From positions 1 to 57,520 of IMG/VR virus record IMGVR_UViG_3300033153_001834: DNA of 57,520 bases; one strand, given 5' to 3'. Made by a program: the position numbers and the translations under genes. The first letter of the stretch is position 1. Each line of letters opens with the position of its first letter. The notes beneath the pieces were generated by a model, which had not been told where the DNA came from, ran no database searches, and worked only from the letters and a program-made list of their open reading frames with translations. This DNA is from a virus. Shown here piece by piece: positions 4,212 to 21,795 of this stretch.

Positions 4212-4469
4212 ATGAAAGTAGTTAATTTTATACCAGTAGGAAATCAAGTTTGTCAAAATACAATTGAAACTTTAGAGCTAATGCTTAAAGAGGCAAAAGA
4301 AGGAAAGCTTCAATCTTTTATTGGTATTACTTTATATAATAATATGGATATGGAACACGTTAAAGCTGGTGCGGTTTATGATAATTATATTTCCTTTATG
4401 GGAATGTTATCAGATTTTCAAATTGATTTTAAAGATGATTATGAGGAAAATAGTAAATGGAAACGATAG
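4212..4469 (+). CDS. Small unknown protein before the ligase
   Basis: 85 residues, MKVVNFIPVGNQVCQNTIET at the start. One predicted helix (LELMLKEAKEGKL) followed by beta-like FIGITLYNN, a layout seen in small phage proteins but with no name I can give. Its end overlaps the start of the ligase gene by 13 bases, so the two are translationally linked. Confidence 0.66.
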   Translation: MKVVNFIPVGNQVCQNTIETLELMLKEAKEGKLQSFIGITLYNNMDMEHVKAGAVYDNYISFMGMLSDFQIDFKDDYEENSKWKR

Positions 4470-5467
4470 TTACACAATTAGAAGAATATAATAAAGCATA
4501 TAGAGCAGGAAACCCTATAGTTCCTAATGAAGTATACGATGCTTTATTAGAAGAATTACCAGAAGACCATCCTTATAGGAATCAAGTTGAGCCTGAAGAA
4601 TTATATAAAGGAAGGATTAAGCATAGTAAACCTATGCTATCTATGCAAAAGGCAAAAACAAAAGAAGATATAGAAAAATGGATTAATACTATATTAGATA
4701 GCGGTTTTAAATTTAAGAGTAAAATGATTCTTATTAAATGTACCGCTAAATTAGATGGTATTGCTGGAAAAAAAGAAGATGGTACTTTAGTTACTCGTGG
4801 TGATGGTCAGTATGGTAATGATGTAACGAGTTCGTTTGATAAAGGGTTATTAGTTTTAGTAAAAGAAATTAATAATGCCGAATTAGGTGAATTTGTAATT
4901 CGCTTAGATTATTTTCAAGAAAAACTTTCTAAAGATTTTTCTCATCCTCGGAACTTCGTATCTGGTGCAATTATGGCAGATACGGTAAGCGATATAACGA
5001 ATAAGGCTTTTGAAGAAGAACAAGTAGTATTTCAAAGCTACTCACTCTTACCAAAAAAAGTTATACCTATAATAGACCTATTAAAAAACTTTAGAGAGCT
5101 TGAGGAGGCTATATCTAAATCTGTTAATTACGCTATAGATGGTGTTATCTTTGAAGTAATAAATCCATCTATAAGAAGAATTATGGGAGAGACAGATCAT
5201 CATCCTAATTGGGCAATAGCATTAAAACCAAAAGATAAAGTATATATATCAACTATATTAGAAATTAAATGGCAAACTGGTAGAACTGGTAAAGTTACTC
5301 CTGTAGTAATAATAGAAACTACTTTAATTGACGGTGTAGAAGTAAGAAGGGCTACTGCTCATAATGCTAAAATGGTAGAAACTATGGGTTTACATGTAGG
5401 TGCTAAAATTGAGTTAATTAGAAGTGGAAGTGTTATACCTTATATAGTTAGAGTTGTAGGAGAATAA
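4457..5467 (+). CDS. ligA: NAD-dependent DNA ligase, N-terminal part (adenylation + OB fold)
   Basis: 336 residues. A short domain Ia-like start (YNKAYRAGNP, YDALLEELP), the adenylation motif KLDG at about 98-101 whose lysine receives AMP, the VTRGDG motif at 112-117, DGVIFE for motif IV, WAIALKPKD for motif V, then an OB fold with GRTGKVTPV and RATAHN. It stops exactly where a full LigA would continue into zinc finger, helix-hairpin-helix and BRCT domains; those are a separate gene at 6910-7707. It can probably be adenylated by NAD alone but should need the second gene for efficient nick binding. Confidence 0.88.
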   Translation: METIVTQLEEYNKAYRAGNPIVPNEVYDALLEELPEDHPYRNQVEPEELYKGRIKHSKPMLSMQKAKTKEDIEKWINTILDSGFKFKSKMILIKCTAKLDGIAGKKEDGTLVTRGDGQYGNDVTSSFDKGLLVLVKEINNAELGEFVIRLDYFQEKLSKDFSHPRNFVSGAIMADTVSDITNKAFEEEQVVFQSYSLLPKKVIPIIDLLKNFRELEEAISKSVNYAIDGVIFEVINPSIRRIMGETDHHPNWAIALKPKDKVYISTILEIKWQTGRTGKVTPVVIIETTLIDGVEVRRATAHNAKMVETMGLHVGAKIELIRSGSVIPYIVRVVGE

Positions 5468-5468
5468 T

Positions 5469-5921
5469 ATGGGATGCGCAAGATTATCATATGTACCAAG
5501 AAATAAAAGAAAAGATGAAATTAAAAACTATGAATATGTAGAAATGCAAAGTGTTACCGATAGAAAAAAAGCATCAAAACAAGGTAATACTGGTTATGAG
5601 TTTGAAATTAATTATGGAAGACATTTTGGTTTCTATAGCCCTAACCAAATATCAAAATTTGAAGAATGTAGTGTATCTAGTAGAGTTATAGCTCAAAGAT
5701 TAACAAGACTTCAACGAAAAGAAGGGTTATTTTTAACTATTGAAGAAGCTATAAAAGCTCCTATTGATATAAGAGTAAAGAAAAATAATAATGACTTATT
5801 AAAAGAAAGAACATTAGTTAAGCAAACAGATATGGAATGGTTTAATGAAAATATTAAACTTATGAATATCGGTTCTCTACATAATAAAAGTTTAATAATA
5901 CAAAGTAGGAGTTTTATATAA
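5469..5921 (+). CDS. Unknown DNA-binding-like protein inside the split ligase
   Basis: 150 residues, starting one base after the ligase stop. The middle (YSPNQISKFEECSVSSRVIA... then FLTIEEAIKAP) resembles the helix-turn-helix repeat found next to the nuclease core in some HNH or NUMOD-type homing endonucleases (CSVS...R...EEA...P). No HNH or GIY-YIG catalytic motif is visible, so if it came from a homing endonuclease the nuclease part is gone. Its last bases overlap the thyA start. It is one of three genes separating the two ligase halves. Confidence 0.62.
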   Translation: MGCARLSYVPRNKRKDEIKNYEYVEMQSVTDRKKASKQGNTGYEFEINYGRHFGFYSPNQISKFEECSVSSRVIAQRLTRLQRKEGLFLTIEEAIKAPIDIRVKKNNNDLLKERTLVKQTDMEWFNENIKLMNIGSLHNKSLIIQSRSFI

Positions 5922-6778
5922 TGGTAAAGACTGGTGAAGAGCAATATCTTGATTTATGTAATCGAATTTTAAACGAAGGCACGATGATTAAAAATAAGCG
6001 TACTGGTAAAGGTTGCTTAACAGTTATTAATGCTGATTTTGAATACGATGCTAGTGATAATAGCTTTCCTTTAGTGACAACTAGAAAAGCGTATTGGAAA
6101 CAAGCGATAGCAGAAATACTAGGCTATTTATGTGGATATAATAACGCTCAACAATTCGCAGATATCGGTTGTAATTCCTGGTTTGCTAATGCTAATGAGA
6201 ATAAAGAATGGTTAAAAAATCCTATGCGTAGAGGTAAAAATGACTTAGGGGGTGGTTTTTCTTATGCTCAAGGAAGAAATTGGGATCAAACTAATATTGA
6301 TCAATATAAAAATATAGTTGATAAATTATCTCAAGGTATTGATGATAGACGATTAATTATGACTTTTAATAATCCAGGGTCGGCACACGCTTCAGCATTA
6401 CCAGCTTGTATGCATACTCATCATTTTTCTATACTTAATGATACTCTCTATCTAACAAGTTATCAACGTTCTATCGATGTACCATTAGGACTTGTTTTTA
6501 ATATGGGTCAAGTCGTATGGTTATTAAGAATTACTGCTCAAATTACAGGATTAAAACCTGGAATAGCTTATCATAAATTAGTTAATTGTCATCTATATGA
6601 TGATCAAATTGAATTAATGAAAGAGCAAGTTCAACGTAAACCTTTTACTCCACCTTATTTACATATTAATCCTGAGATTAGAACTCTTAAAGATTTAGAA
6701 ACCTGGGTTACTATGGATTGTTTTAGTTTAACAGGATATAAACATCACGAGCCTATTAAGTATCCATTCGCAGTATAA
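5921..6778 (+). CDS. thyA: Thymidylate synthase (ThyA family)
   Basis: 285 residues. The nucleophile is in LPACMHTHH (Cys about 163), followed by the dUMP-binding YQRSIDVPLG (181-190) and Asn about 194 in LVFNMG. That Asn selects uracil; dCMP hydroxymethylases carry Asp here. NCHLYDD gives the His/Tyr pair, and the C-terminal PFAV matches the folate-closing tail. It should methylate dUMP with methylene-tetrahydrofolate, although some phage members hydroxymethylate instead and sequence alone does not exclude that. It sits between the two ligase genes, overlapping both neighbours. Confidence 0.9.
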   Translation: MVKTGEEQYLDLCNRILNEGTMIKNKRTGKGCLTVINADFEYDASDNSFPLVTTRKAYWKQAIAEILGYLCGYNNAQQFADIGCNSWFANANENKEWLKNPMRRGKNDLGGGFSYAQGRNWDQTNIDQYKNIVDKLSQGIDDRRLIMTFNNPGSAHASALPACMHTHHFSILNDTLYLTSYQRSIDVPLGLVFNMGQVVWLLRITAQITGLKPGIAYHKLVNCHLYDDQIELMKEQVQRKPFTPPYLHINPEIRTLKDLETWVTMDCFSLTGYKHHEPIKYPFAV

Positions 6779-6900
6779 TGAATATTATTAAATTACTATT
6801 TGAAATGGCTATATTATTTTCTATAGGCATTTTAGAAAGTATAATCAAAATCTTTAAACCAAAAATTTATATTGAATGGTTTATGGATAAATTCGATTGA
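6778..6900 (+). CDS. 40-residue putative membrane peptide
   Basis: ATG overlaps the thyA stop (TAATG). The peptide is MNIIKLLFEMAILFSIGILE... with one hydrophobic segment at about 4-24, then a basic-aromatic tail ending WFMDKFD. Stop at 6898-6900, nine bases before the second ligase gene. A single-span inner-membrane peptide is likely; function unknown. Confidence 0.5.
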   Translation: MNIIKLLFEMAILFSIGILESIIKIFKPKIYIEWFMDKFD

Positions 6901-6909
6901 GGATAAAAA

Positions 6910-7707
6910 ATGAGCGTATTTCCAACAACCTGCATGAATTGCGGAAGTAAATTAGAATGGTCTAAGACAGGAGTAGATTTATATTGCCATAATATAAATT
7001 GCTCTGCTAAAAACGGTAGACAATTAACACATTTTTTTGGAATGTTAAATAACCTAGATGGCTTTGGACCAAAGACTATTGAAATATTAATAGAAAATGG
7101 ATATGATACTATTCCTAAGATATATGAAATGAAATGGAATGATTTTAAGATGTGTGGATTTGGAGATAAAACTTCAATAAATCTTGGTAGCGAGTTAGAG
7201 CTATCATTAGAAAGACCATTACCAGATTATCGTTTTATATCAGCATTAGGGATTCCTGATTTAGGATTAGGTGGAGCAAAGAAACTATTAGAGCATTTTT
7301 GCTGGGAAGATATATTATTTGAAATATCTTTATATGATTTTTTATCTATAGATGGTTTTGGTCAAAATAAGTCTAGCTCTATTCATAATTACTGTAGAGA
7401 AAATCGTAAATTATTATTAGAAATATCAGACCTTAGTTTTAATATTACACACGAAAAATTAATAGTAGTAGAGTCAGCTTTTACAGGAAAGCGTATATGT
7501 TTTACTGGTAAAATGGCTAGTAATAGGTCTGCAATGGAAGGGTTTGCTAGGGGGATAGGGGCTACTATTACAGGAGTAAATTCTAAAACTAATGTATTAG
7601 TTTATGGAGAAAAAGTAGGTGCTAATAAAATGAATGCTGCTAAAAAGTTTAATGTAGAAATTATGACTGAAAAAGAATTTATTGTATTAACGGGCTTTAC
7701 TTCATAG
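6910..7707 (+). CDS. ligA: NAD-dependent DNA ligase, C-terminal part (zinc finger, HhH, BRCT)
   Basis: 265 residues with its own GAGGAT ribosome site and ATG. Four cysteines (about C8, C11, C26, C31) form the LigA zinc finger; helix-hairpin-helix repeats follow (LDGFGPKTIEILIE, LGLGGAKKLL, IDGFGQNKSSSI), and a BRCT domain starts near 193 (GKRICFTGKM...SNRSAMEG). There is no nucleotidyltransferase core. In LigA these domains encircle nicked DNA, so this subunit probably joins the 4457-5467 product to make one working ligase. The split falls between the OB fold and the zinc finger. Confidence 0.87.
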   Translation: MSVFPTTCMNCGSKLEWSKTGVDLYCHNINCSAKNGRQLTHFFGMLNNLDGFGPKTIEILIENGYDTIPKIYEMKWNDFKMCGFGDKTSINLGSELELSLERPLPDYRFISALGIPDLGLGGAKKLLEHFCWEDILFEISLYDFLSIDGFGQNKSSSIHNYCRENRKLLLEISDLSFNITHEKLIVVESAFTGKRICFTGKMASNRSAMEGFARGIGATITGVNSKTNVLVYGEKVGANKMNAAKKFNVEIMTEKEFIVLTGFTS

Positions 7708-7748: not shown

Positions 7749-7883
7749 ATGGATTATTTTCTAATTGCTTTATTTTCATTTTCATTAGGAATTGGAATTG
7801 GTTTACTTATGATGTTCATTAATACTAGAAGTATATCAATAAAACTTCATGAATGTGTAAAAGATATAAAGGATAACAAATGA
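7749..7883 (+). CDS. 44-residue membrane-anchored peptide
   Basis: MDYFLIALFSFSLGIGIGLL... is a clear N-terminal transmembrane segment (about 4-23) followed by a short polar tail ending VKDIKDNK, probably in the cytoplasm. The TGA overlaps the next ATG (ATGA). It directly follows the promoter at 7696-7724. Small single-span early proteins of this kind may alter the host envelope or exclude other phages; that is inference. Confidence 0.6.
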   Translation: MDYFLIALFSFSLGIGIGLLMMFINTRSISIKLHECVKDIKDNK

Positions 7884-8188
7884 AAGATGCCCCTCAGTAT
7901 TTAGAAGAAGCAAAAAATCTTATGATAGAACGTGGTAAGATTTATGATAATAGTGATAAAGAACGTAGTATGGAAGCTACAGTAAACGCTTTTAATGCAA
8001 TTACAGGAAAAAACTTATCCGAATCAGAAGGATGGGAATTTATGCTTATACTAAAGCAAGTAAGACAATTTAAAAATCTAAAATTTCACCAAGATTCTGC
8101 CGAAGATAGTGTAGCATACTCTGCTCTTTTAGCTGAAAGTCTTGAAAAAGAATCTAATCAATTAGTAGTAACTATTACTACGGAGTAA
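7880..8188 (+). CDS. MazG-like / DUF6378-type phage protein
   Basis: 102 residues. The layout (APQYLEEAKNLMIERGKIYD..., then KQVRQFKN, then QDSAEDSVAYSALLAE) matches the small helical phage family related to MazG-type all-alpha NTP pyrophosphatases. The acidic DSAEDSVAY stretch would be the metal-binding helix. Such enzymes could clean up or shape dNTP pools, but activity of this subgroup is not established. Start overlaps the membrane peptide gene. Confidence 0.62.
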   Translation: MKDAPQYLEEAKNLMIERGKIYDNSDKERSMEATVNAFNAITGKNLSESEGWEFMLILKQVRQFKNLKFHQDSAEDSVAYSALLAESLEKESNQLVVTITTE

Positions 8189-16230: not shown

Positions 16231-16700
16231 CATATATAGTAAGGTACAGTAATGTACCAAGAGTTAATAATGAAGATGTAGCTCAACATTCTTTTTTAGT
16301 TGCTGCTATTTTATTTCAACTTCATATGGAATATAAATTTAATCTAGGAGATGCATTAGAATTAGCAGTAGCTCACGATATATTAGAATCAGAAACATCT
16401 GATGTATGTCATCTTTTAAAGAAAGAGCATCCGGATTTATACACAGCATTAAAGAAGGCAGAAAAAGAAGCTGCAATACGTTTTCCTATATCTATTCAAA
16501 TAGCAATAGAAAGATATGATGAAAATAAATCAATAGAAGCTAAAGTGGTTCATTTAGCTGATGCAATGCAATGTCAACAATATGCTGAAAATGAAATCAG
16601 ACTTGGGTCTAATCATTATTTTAAAGAAGTACGTTCAAATAGTATTAAAAGAATAAACTTTTTAAAGGCTGAATTAAGTCAATTTTATATAGGTGAATAA
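16191..16700 (+). CDS. HD-domain phosphohydrolase, YfbR-like
   Basis: 169 residues. The HD metal ligands are visible as H33 in EDVAQHSFLVA, H62-D63 in AVAHDILE, and D124 in VVHLADAM. The layout (RYSNVPRVNNEDVAQHS near 18-34) matches YfbR-type 5'-deoxynucleotidases, which remove phosphate from dNMPs. In phages such enzymes may cut competing dNMP pools or help nucleotide exchange. The stop touches the polymerase start (16700). Confidence 0.82.
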   Translation: MGPEGYYERLYRLTYIVRYSNVPRVNNEDVAQHSFLVAAILFQLHMEYKFNLGDALELAVAHDILESETSDVCHLLKKEHPDLYTALKKAEKEAAIRFPISIQIAIERYDENKSIEAKVVHLADAMQCQQYAENEIRLGSNHYFKEVRSNSIKRINFLKAELSQFYIGE

Positions 16701-19669
16701 TGGGTCATTTAACTTTACATAGTGAATATTCATTCGGAGCTTGTTATGGCTTTTTAAATAGATTAGTAAATGAATATTCTGATGATGGTTTTATTGGTAT
16801 TTGCGATAACTTTAATACTTTTAGTGCCTATAGACTTCAAGAAGCTTGTAGAAAGCATAATGAAAACTTAACTGACTGGACAGATGGTCAGGCATATAAT
16901 CCAATTCAAAAAGGTGCAAGAAAAAGTAAAGCTAAATTTATTAAACCAATATTTGGTATTAGAGTTACTGTAGTAGAGGATGCTAGTATAGATAATAGCA
17001 GAACTTTTGGTAGAGTAGGGCAGCATGGTACAGAGTATATAGTTATCGCAAAAAATCAAGACGGCATAAGAGAGATTTTTAAACTAACTTCAATCGGTAG
17101 CTCTAATTTCTTCTATAGAGAGAATGTTTCAGCCTCTGATATAGATAATCTAACAGAAAATGTGTATGTAATTCCCACTTCTAATATTATAACCGACAGA
17201 GCTGATTACTATGGGCTCACATTTTTTAATCGGGACTCTTTACCCGTATATTTAAAAACGGATAAGCACAGAGCCTTACCTTTAGTTGCTATAGACGAAA
17301 ACTTTTATCCAACTAAAGAAGACAAAAATGTATATGAATGCTTCGCTGGTAGGAAGAGAGATACTCGTTCTTTTCCTCAATATATATTAGAAGAAGATGA
17401 GCAAAGGTATTATTATCCAAAAGAGGCAGTAGATAATATTAAGGTTATAGCGGATTCAATAGAATTCTTTGAATTACCAAGAGCTAAACCAATTAAAGCC
17501 ATTAATAGTGATACTATTGAAAACCTTATTATAAAAGGGGCAAAGAAAAAAGGTATAGACTTATCAGTTGAACCTTATAGTAGTAGAATAGAAAGTGAAC
17601 TAAAGATAATGCACGATAAAAATTTTATTGATTATTTCTTAGTTATGGCCGATGTTATTCAATGGGCAAAGAAAAGAATGTTAGTAGCACCTGGTCGTGG
17701 TAGTTCTGCTGGTAGCCTAGTATGTCATTGTTTAGATATAACAGATTTAGACCCACTAAAATATGACTTAGTATTCGAGAGATTTATTTCTCCTGAACGT
17801 TCTGACTTCCCAGATATTGATTCTGATTTTAATGATAAAAAGAGAATTAAAGTAGTTCAATATATGGAGAAAACATACGGAAAAGAAAAGGTAAAAACTA
17901 TTGCGAATATTATTACATTTAAACCTAAGTCAGCTATTGGAGAATTCGCTAAAGCACTAAGAATACCAGAGTGGAAAACAGAAGCTACAAAAGATTCTAT
18001 TTTAGATAGAGCAGGAGGCGATAACCGTGCTTCTTTTTGTATGGAAGATACTTTTACTGAAACAGAACCTGGACGTCAACTTTTAAAAGAGCATCCTGAA
18101 TTAGGATTAGTAATGTTTATCGAAGGTCACGCTAAAAATAAAGGTAAGCATGCAGCAGGTGTAATTATATCTAATGAACCATTAACTAATTTTTGCGGAG
18201 TAGATAATAGATACGATACTATTCATATGAATAAATATGATGCAGAGGCAATTAATCTATTAAAAGTTGATATTTTAGGACTAAGGACGTTATCAGTTTT
18301 AGAAGATACTGCAGAACTATCAGGATTTAAAGCTACTGACTTCTATAAGATAGACTTAGAAGAAGAGACTACATATGAAATCTTCGAAGATCAAAGATTA
18401 TCTGGTATCTTTCAATTCGAAGGGGCTACAATGAATCGCCTTAATCAAGAAGTTCCTATGGAGTGTTTTGATGATATTGCTGCATCGCAAGCCTTAGCTA
18501 GACCAGGTGCATTATCTTCTGGTGGTACTACTAAATATATTAATATTAAAAATGGTAAAAAGGAAGCGTTTTATTATAGTGATGTTCATAAAGATATTAC
18601 TAAAAGTACATTTGGTATTATTGTCTATCAAGAACAAATGATGCGAGTAGCTAGAGAAATGGCAAACTTTACTTGGTCTGATGTAGGAAGATTAAGAAAG
18701 GCTGCATCTAAATCTATGGGAGATGAATATTTCTCTACATTTAAACCAAAATTTATAGAAGGCTGTCAAGATTTCGGTGGTTTAACAGAAGAAATGTCTG
18801 AAAAATTATGGAAGGATGTAGCTAGTTCAGGTTCATATTCTTTTAACTTATCTCACGCAGTTTCTTATGGAGTTATATCTAACTGGTGCGCTTGGGCTAA
18901 AAAGAATCACGGATTACAATTTGTAGCTTCTATTTTAAATAATTCTAAAACAGATAAAGATTCATTAAAAGTTCTAAGAGAGTTTTATGATAATGAAGGA
19001 TTACAATATGAATCTGTAAATCCAGATACTTCAGAAGTAAGATGGTCTATTCAAGATGGTAAATTAGTAGGTGGTTTAGGTAATATAGATGGCTTTGGTC
19101 CACAGAAGGCTAAGGATGCTATTAAAATGAGAAACGGAGAAAAGCCTTTTACTCCATCAGTCTTAAGCACTATGTTTGAACCAACTACCCCTTACGATAT
19201 ATTATTTCCAGCAGATTTTCATTGGTATGATATATATAATAATCCGTATGAATATACAGAAGAAAGAACAAAAGTATCATATTTAAAAGATATCCAAAAG
19301 AAGAAAGAGTATTGGTGTATTGGTCAAATAATTTATTTCGATGATATTAATCTTAATGATTATGTACATATTCAAAAAAGAGGTAATGAAATAACTGATG
19401 GGTTTGATAGAAAGATAGTTTTTAGAGTTGAAGATGATACAGATATTATGACTATGATAGTATCTCGTTTTGATTATCCTGGACTTAGAGATATCCTAAC
19501 AAAATGTAAGATAGATAAAACTTGGCTATTAATTAAAGGTGAAATTATATTTCCAAATGCAAGAATATTTATGGCTAAGCAAATAGCAAATATTAGTGAG
19601 CAAATAGGACTTCAGCCTTATAATATTGATACTGCTAAATTTAGTAAAATAAGAAGAGTAAAAAGATAA
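16700..19669 (+). CDS. DNA polymerase III alpha-type (DnaE family, C family)
   Basis: 989 residues, shorter than host DnaE (about 1160). A PHP-domain start (LTLHSEYSFG at 4-13), then the nucleotide-binding GRGSSAGSL (about 331-339) and the catalytic PDIDSDF (about 371-377) of C-family polymerases, a palm/fingers region with LARPGAL and YQEQMMRVA, and helix-hairpin-helix elements near 790-800 (IDGFGPQKAKDA). There is no exonuclease; the DnaQ protein at 14760 is the probable proofreader. It is the phage replicative polymerase. No primase or clamp is recognised in the window. Confidence 0.93.
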   Translation: MGHLTLHSEYSFGACYGFLNRLVNEYSDDGFIGICDNFNTFSAYRLQEACRKHNENLTDWTDGQAYNPIQKGARKSKAKFIKPIFGIRVTVVEDASIDNSRTFGRVGQHGTEYIVIAKNQDGIREIFKLTSIGSSNFFYRENVSASDIDNLTENVYVIPTSNIITDRADYYGLTFFNRDSLPVYLKTDKHRALPLVAIDENFYPTKEDKNVYECFAGRKRDTRSFPQYILEEDEQRYYYPKEAVDNIKVIADSIEFFELPRAKPIKAINSDTIENLIIKGAKKKGIDLSVEPYSSRIESELKIMHDKNFIDYFLVMADVIQWAKKRMLVAPGRGSSAGSLVCHCLDITDLDPLKYDLVFERFISPERSDFPDIDSDFNDKKRIKVVQYMEKTYGKEKVKTIANIITFKPKSAIGEFAKALRIPEWKTEATKDSILDRAGGDNRASFCMEDTFTETEPGRQLLKEHPELGLVMFIEGHAKNKGKHAAGVIISNEPLTNFCGVDNRYDTIHMNKYDAEAINLLKVDILGLRTLSVLEDTAELSGFKATDFYKIDLEEETTYEIFEDQRLSGIFQFEGATMNRLNQEVPMECFDDIAASQALARPGALSSGGTTKYINIKNGKKEAFYYSDVHKDITKSTFGIIVYQEQMMRVAREMANFTWSDVGRLRKAASKSMGDEYFSTFKPKFIEGCQDFGGLTEEMSEKLWKDVASSGSYSFNLSHAVSYGVISNWCAWAKKNHGLQFVASILNNSKTDKDSLKVLREFYDNEGLQYESVNPDTSEVRWSIQDGKLVGGLGNIDGFGPQKAKDAIKMRNGEKPFTPSVLSTMFEPTTPYDILFPADFHWYDIYNNPYEYTEERTKVSYLKDIQKKKEYWCIGQIIYFDDINLNDYVHIQKRGNEITDGFDRKIVFRVEDDTDIMTMIVSRFDYPGLRDILTKCKIDKTWLLIKGEIIFPNARIFMAKQIANISEQIGLQPYNIDTAKFSKIRRVKR

Positions 19670-20898: not shown

Positions 20899-21795
20899 AT
20901 GCCAATAGATAACAGTTTACCAGACCATCCGCTTTTAGTAAATTTAAAAACTGGTAAAAAGCCGGTTACGCAATATATTAATGGATTAAATGCTATTAAT
21001 GTTCGTATACTAGAAGCACCAACTATTACAACTTTAGAAAGCTATATTCCTGAATTTACATCTGGAACATGGGAAGATAATCCAGTTTATGGTTTTTCTA
21101 AAGAACAAAGGAGTCAAGCTGTAAATGATTTATTTGATGGTTATTTATTGCCTACTGCTCTTGAAACTATTAAAATTACCTTCATCGTAGAAGGCATTGA
21201 TTTACCTGATGTTTGTCATTTAATTCGTCATCGAACTATGGGCTTTAGTGCTTCTGGTACAGGTGATAGAGATTCAAGAAACGATAAAGTATTATTAAAA
21301 CCATCTATTATTGGTTCTAAGTATGAAGCTAGTATAAAACTAGCTACAGATATATTAAAAGAAACTTATGCTAAAATGATGGATGATCCAGATATTCCAG
21401 TATTAGATGCTAGAACAATTCTTCCAAGAAATACTAATAATTATTATTATGTAACTGCAGACTTAAAGGCAATCTTTGCTTTTATCGGTCAACGTAAGGA
21501 TGAAAGTATTGAACCTGAGACTATGAATATCTTTGCTCTTAAATTATGGTTAGAGATATGTAAAATTTATCCAAAATTAAAAGATAAAATAGATTTACGT
21601 GGTCCAGATCATTTTGCTATTAAGACTTCTATCGGTGGACGTTCATCTAATTTCTATAGACCAGAACCTAAAAATGATATTTATAACTATAAATTGAATT
21701 GGTTTATGAAACAAAAGATGCGTCAAGAAATGCGTGGTGGAGATCAATATATTAAATTAAGAGATTCTATTTTAAAAGAGATAGATAAATTATAA
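20899..21795 (+). CDS. thyX: ThyX-like flavin-dependent thymidylate synthase homolog, altered motif
   Basis: 298 residues. A ThyX fold is supported by RHR at 110-112, DARTILPRNTN (170-180) for the ARxxLP region, and TADLKAIFAFIGQR (186-199) for the R-ending motif. The diagnostic RHRxxSxNExSxRY box is not intact: after RHR comes TMGFSASGTGDRDSR, lacking the NExS core. The reaction may therefore differ from plain dUMP methylation. A normal ThyA is also present, so this copy is free to have a different role, for example a modified pyrimidine. Confidence 0.75.
   Translation: MPIDNSLPDHPLLVNLKTGKKPVTQYINGLNAINVRILEAPTITTLESYIPEFTSGTWEDNPVYGFSKEQRSQAVNDLFDGYLLPTALETIKITFIVEGIDLPDVCHLIRHRTMGFSASGTGDRDSRNDKVLLKPSIIGSKYEASIKLATDILKETYAKMMDDPDIPVLDARTILPRNTNNYYYVTADLKAIFAFIGQRKDESIEPETMNIFALKLWLEICKIYPKLKDKIDLRGPDHFAIKTSIGGRSSNFYRPEPKNDIYNYKLNWFMKQKMRQEMRGGDQYIKLRDSILKEIDKL

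What the first reader, a model, noticed from the sequence alone, without database searches (positions are those of the whole stretch)
4457..7707. NAD-dependent DNA ligase split into two genes around a thyA-containing insert
The adenylation and OB-fold part (4457-5467) ends exactly at the domain border and the zinc finger, helix-hairpin-helix and BRCT part restarts as a separate gene with its own ribosome site (6910). Three genes lie between: a helix-turn-helix-like protein resembling homing endonuclease accessory domains, thyA and a 40-residue membrane peptide. This suggests a past insertion that left a working two-subunit ligase.
Basis: partly seen in the sequence, partly recalled or inferred. 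Interest (0 to 1): 0.78.

Follow-up and report, generated by a model that had tools for sequence, protein, structure and literature searches.

The report
Phage DNA ligase in two genes
This phage makes its NAD+-dependent DNA ligase as two separate proteins, cut in the linker between the catalytic and the DNA-gripping domains; the same design is already known from T5-like phages, but here it sits in a different ligase lineage whose nearest relatives are whole genes, and the genes lying between the halves are interchangeable.

Summary
A LigA front half (adenylation + OB fold, 4457-5467) and back half (zinc finger, HhH, BRCT, 6910-7707) are separate genes, each with its own ribosome site, separated by ORF150, thyA and a 40-codon ORF. 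No other NAD+ ligase is found in the 57.5 kb virus record. A related contig (L002) has the same split, so it is not a sequencing error; both halves are under purifying selection. Two-gene LigA cut at this border is not new: T5-like phages (Demerecviridae) carry annotated 'subunit A/B', and PDB 9hu3/9i5i show phage PR1's version as a heterodimer on nicked DNA. New here: the window's ligase is not in the T5-like split clade. Both halves group with intact ligases (viral contigs L078, L240, L241; the only LigA of Desulfoluna), and one clade of all splits is rejected (AU p=0.0007). An independent split at the same linker is the best reading; one ancient split plus re-fusion is not excluded. Heterodimer function is inferred, not shown.

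The parts
4457..5467 (+). LigA front half ('subunit A'): truncated domain Ia, nucleotidyltransferase with KLDG motif (K98), OB fold; ends 7 residues after VIPY
   Evidence: Pfam adenylation and OB domains; alignment with intact and split ligases; AF2 model matches LigA structures including phage PR1 heterodimer chain A
5469..5921 (+). ORF150, unknown function; positional homologue of ORF149 in L002
   Evidence: 32% identity, E 7e-19 to L002:2301-2750; no Pfam match over cut-off, no PHROG and no phage-record relative; AF2 pLDDT 33, uninformative
5921..6778 (+). thyA, thymidylate synthase (ThyA family)
   Evidence: PF00303 E 4e-67 over the whole protein; 57-58% identical to ThyA of Providencia and Vibrio phages
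6778..6900 (+). ORF40, short hydrophobic ORF; a gene only by position
   Evidence: ORF listing; no family
6910..7707 (+). LigA back half ('subunit B'): C4 zinc finger (C8, C11, C26, C31), helix-hairpin-helix, BRCT; starts 4 residues before the PTxC of the zinc finger
   Evidence: Pfam ZBD/HHH/BRCT; alignments; matches PDB 9hu3 chain B 'DNA ligase subunit B'
6891..6909 (+). ribosome-binding region of the back half (GAGG upstream of the ATG)
   Evidence: sequence

Best explanation
The phage encodes one NAD+-dependent DNA ligase as two polypeptides. Subunit A takes NAD+, adenylates its active-site lysine (K98) and carries the OB fold; subunit B supplies the zinc finger, HhH and BRCT domains that close the clamp round nicked DNA. 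They would pair, probably on nicked DNA, and seal nicks during phage replication. The gene was cut in the short OB/zinc-finger linker with almost no residue lost, in the ancestor of this phage and its relative L002, most likely independently of the T5-like split. The gap now holds ORF150 plus an exchangeable thymidylate synthase (ThyA here, ThyX in L002). Shown: the split, its conservation, selection on both halves, the common origin of the halves, and placement outside the T5-like split clade. Inferred: heterodimer formation, activity, independence of the split, and how the cut arose.
For: Domains and near-complete coverage of full-length LigA. Same split in collinear relative L002; dN/dS about 0.17 in both halves. 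Catalytic KxDG and other invariant residues and all four zinc-finger cysteines kept. Nearest relatives are intact: L078 (38%, 408 bits) and Desulfoluna (35-36%, about 360 bits), against about 211 bits for the best T5-like-clade split; L240 and L241 also intact. Tree: split pair 100/100 within a 100/100 clade otherwise intact; T5-like splits a separate 100/100 clade; each half alone agrees; AU test rejects one clade of all splits, p=0.0007. Structural precedent: PR1 phage heterodimeric ligase on nicked DNA, 9hu3/9i5i.
Against: No biochemistry and no complex model could be run. AU does not reject T5-like splits and the window clade (with its intact sisters) as sister groups (p=0.277), so one ancient split plus one re-fusion also takes two steps; the two splits cut at the same place to within a residue or so. 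Only two split contigs of this lineage are known. The window has Asn24 where the other aligned ligases have Asp (E. coli D32 by alignment), in the NMN-binding domain, which could affect the NAD+ step.
Confidence: 0.75

Rival explanations
1. One ancient split in a common ancestor of the T5-like and window ligases, followed by re-fusion in the L078/Desulfoluna/L240/L241 lineage.
For: Equal parsimony (two changes) if T5-like and window clades are sisters, which is not rejected (p=0.277). Cut sites and short linkers correspond almost exactly. In many split loci the halves lie only about 90 nt apart, so fusion would be easy.
Against: The sister relation is not supported in the 55-row tree (70/16 the other way). 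The intact sisters include the sole chromosomal LigA of Desulfoluna genomes and three different viral contigs.
Confidence: 0.25
2. One reading: a homing-type mobile element carrying thyA inserted into an intact ligA and broke it.
For: Genes do lie between the halves; GIY-YIG genes sit in the gap of some other split ligases (L080, L127, L114); a homing-endonuclease split of a ribonucleotide reductase gene that keeps function is published (Friedrich 2007, title as cited in PMC3326045).
Against: Collinear L002 has ThyX, not ThyA, in the gap; ORF150/149 shows no nuclease homology; no intron. A lost nuclease cannot be excluded.
Confidence: 0.12
3. The halves are decaying remnants, or separate proteins that no longer form a ligase (for example a self-adenylating A and a DNA-binding B).
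For: No activity data; Asn24 in place of the otherwise conserved Asp.
Against: dN/dS about 0.17 in both halves, conserved synteny, ribosome sites and motifs; solved heterodimer of the same layout.
Confidence: 0.08
4. Sequencing or assembly error, or an intron or split intein, hides one normal ligase.
For: None beyond the split itself.
Against: Same split in an independent contig; 1.4 kb of coding genes between; no intron family; neither half carries extra terminal sequence that could be an intein.
Confidence: 0.01

Closest known systems
Heterodimeric NAD+-dependent DNA ligase of T5-like phages (Demerecviridae; T5/BF23 subunits A and B; Providencia phage PR1, PDB 9hu3/9i5i)
   Same: Same two polypeptides, same cut in the OB/zinc-finger linker to within a residue or so, genes between the halves in some members
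   Different: Different ligase lineage (AU p=0.0007 against one clade of splits); the phage has other replication and packaging genes (DNA polymerase III alpha; terminase nearest to Caulobacter phage DMCA, Pm86 and Kagunavirus-type phages); the gap holds a thymidylate synthase
Intact LigA of Desulfoluna and of viral contigs L078, L240, L241
   Same: Nearest relatives of both halves; same domain order and short linker
   Different: One gene, 611 to about 630 codons
Bacterial LigA (E. coli, PDB 2owo)
   Same: Same domain order and catalytic KxDG
   Different: One chain of 671 aa; NCBIfam LigA equivalog cut-offs are not met by either half alone
Genes-in-pieces ribonucleotide reductase (Friedrich 2007, cited in PMC3326045)
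   Same: A replication-related enzyme split in two genes with DNA inserted between
   Different: There a homing endonuclease is the insert; here none is detectable

Membership tests
NAD+-dependent DNA ligase (LigA) | Adenylation domain with KxDG lysine, OB fold, C4 zinc finger, HhH, BRCT | tested here: met
   All found, spread over two genes
NAD+-dependent DNA ligase (LigA) | Domain Ia NAD+-binding residues | tested here: inconclusive
   Y15, Y27 and D28 kept; Asn24 where the other aligned ligases have Asp; Arg16 where canonical LigA has His or Tyr (roles of these residues from general knowledge of E. coli LigA)
NAD+-dependent DNA ligase (LigA) | NAD+-dependent nick sealing | not testable with these tools
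   needs biochemistry
T5-like heterodimeric ligase | Two genes cut between OB fold and zinc finger | tested here: met
T5-like heterodimeric ligase | Descent from the T5-like split ligase (same clade) | tested here: not met
   Separate clades; one clade of splits rejected, p=0.0007; an older shared split followed by re-fusion is not excluded
T5-like heterodimeric ligase | Subunits form a heterodimer on nicked DNA | not testable with these tools
   known for PR1 (9hu3, 9i5i), not tested here
Homing-endonuclease gene split | Nuclease gene or intron in the gap | tested here: not met
   No GIY-YIG, HNH or other nuclease family in the gap; no intron

The most novel reading that the evidence does not exclude
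The same inter-domain linker of LigA has been cut at least twice independently in phages, so the linker is a natural breaking point and a two-chain ligase is repeatedly tolerated or favoured; in this lineage the gap has become an exchange slot in which unrelated thymidylate synthases (ThyA, ThyX) replace each other between conserved flanks.
Probability: 0.6. Interest if true: 0.5.

Novelty: new variant of a known kind. Interest (0 to 1): 0.42.

Why it matters
A second, phylogenetically separate two-gene NAD+ ligase with intact sisters gives a natural comparison for asking what is gained or lost when the catalytic core and the DNA clamp are on different chains, and marks a cut point useful for split-ligase tools. 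The ThyA/ThyX exchange in one otherwise collinear locus is a clear case of non-homologous gene replacement in phages.

Tried and rejected
Intron in the gap: Rfam gave only a weak histone stem-loop match, taken as chance. Homing endonuclease nature of ORF150: no significant Pfam or PHROG match, no phage relative at E up to 1, AF2 model at pLDDT 33 meaningless. L018, a hit of the ligase search, encodes structural genes at the matched place: chance match. Second ligase in the record: none. Membership in the T5-like ligase clade: rejected. A paper on the PR1 heterodimeric ligase was not found in the open library; in the papers read, T5-type subunits appear only as annotation. The AF2 model of the front half is moderate (pLDDT 72) and was used only for fold recognition. 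The two chains could not be modelled together.

Full report
Observation. Pfam finds the adenylation and OB domains in 4457-5467, with the OB match ending one residue before the stop, and the zinc finger, HhH and BRCT domains in 6910-7707. Against the full-length phage LigA family phrog_3869 the halves cover positions 9-382 and 390-650 of 656, so the cut costs almost nothing. The back-half frame has a stop just before 6910, and both halves have GAGG-type ribosome sites. The record holds no other NAD+ or ATP ligase, but it is an IMG/VR contig that may be incomplete.

It is real and old. A viral contig, IMGVR_UViG_3300013101_000789 (L002/L005), has the same split with halves 66% and 73% identical. 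The two genomes are collinear for the whole overlap, from the helicase at 2.2-3.4 kb to the helicase at 12.3-13.9 kb. NG86 dN/dS is 0.28/1.68 for the front and 0.20/1.21 for the back half: both are under purifying selection, with dS close to saturation. The KLDG lysine (K98), the other invariant residues of the aligned ligases and the four zinc-finger cysteines are kept. One oddity: Asn24 where the other aligned ligases have Asp.

The gap. L002 has LigA, ORF149 (32% identical to ORF150, E 7e-19), ORF97, ThyX (PF02511, E 1.8e-45), LigB. The window has LigA, ORF150, ThyA (PF00303), ORF40, LigB. So ORF150/149 is the shared spacer gene and the thymidylate synthase is exchangeable. ORF150 shows no nuclease homology in Pfam, PHROGs, NCBIfam or 50,697 phage records; its AF2 model is meaningless. 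Rfam shows no intron. The claim of a homing-type insert is therefore not supported, though a vanished element cannot be excluded: other split ligases do carry GIY-YIG genes in the gap.

The kind is known. T5-like phages of several genera carry LigA as 'subunit A' and 'subunit B' with the same border and no or a few genes between; papers list these as annotation. PDB 9hu3 and 9i5i are the 'PR1 phage heterodimeric DNA ligase' on nicked DNA, released in 2026. In a census of the fetched loci 132 were split and 91 intact (many near-identical, so not independent counts). The gap has a median of 91 nt, with 22 above 700 nt, holding among others GIY-YIG, NADAR and carbamoyltransferase genes.

But this is not the T5-like ligase. 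The nearest relatives of the window ligase are intact: viral contig L078 (611 aa, 38%, 408 bits) and Desulfoluna/Desulfobacterales ligases (35-36%, about 360 bits), against about 211 bits for the best split of the T5-like clade. Each of the three Desulfoluna-type genomes has this as its only LigA match. Viral contigs L240 and L241 add two more intact members. In a tree of 55 ligases the window/L002 pair (100/100) sits with intact L078 and Desulfoluna (100/100) and the T5-like splits form their own clade (100/100); a tree with L240 and L241 agrees, as do trees of each half alone. Forcing all splits into one clade costs 65.6 log-likelihood units, AU p=0.0007. The phage is also not T5-like by polymerase (DNA polymerase III alpha) or terminase.

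Limit of that conclusion. T5-like splits and the window clade with its intact sisters cannot be excluded as sister groups (p=0.277). If they are, one old split plus one re-fusion needs as many steps as two splits. I favour two splits because the intact sisters are diverse and include a sole chromosomal ligase, but give the rival 0.25.

Mechanism. The anatomy and the PR1 structure make a heterodimer the obvious working model: A does the NAD+ chemistry and carries the OB fold, B closes the DNA clamp. This is inference from homology; no complex was modelled and no assay exists for this phage.

Verdict. Observation confirmed; two-gene ligase supported; insertion cause not supported. A separately derived variant of a known kind.

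Noticed in passing
window 20899-21795: A second, divergent Thy1/ThyX-like protein (298 aa, Pfam Thy1 E 5.8e-12, below the NCBIfam thyX cut-off, altered RHR motif) in the same phage as thyA; not recognisably related to the ThyX of L002 by BLASTP.
   Followed up: partly
window 16700-19669: A phage-encoded DNA polymerase III alpha subunit (989 aa), closest to small Cronobacter and Vibrio phages (38-40%), in a genome with a terminase nearest to Caulobacter phage DMCA, Pm86 and Kagunavirus-type phages.
   Followed up: partly
L157 4992-6851, L158, L159: Desulfoluna-type genomes carry as their only LigA match a divergent ligase of about 620 codons whose closest kin are phage ligases: possible exchange of the housekeeping ligase with phages.
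   Followed up: partly
L002 8386-9006: A gene with HNH/AP2 homing endonuclease-like sequence lies just after the Cas4-type exonuclease gene in L002 and is absent at that place in the window; family not tested.
   Followed up: no
L024, L027, L030: T5-like-clade split ligases with 4-5 kb between the halves; in L024 this holds carbamoyltransferase and 2OG-Fe(II) oxygenase genes.
   Followed up: partly
window 7880-8188: Small protein matching PHROG families annotated 'phosphofructokinase' (phrog_474, E 1.2e-23), a doubtful name for a 102-aa protein.
   Followed up: no
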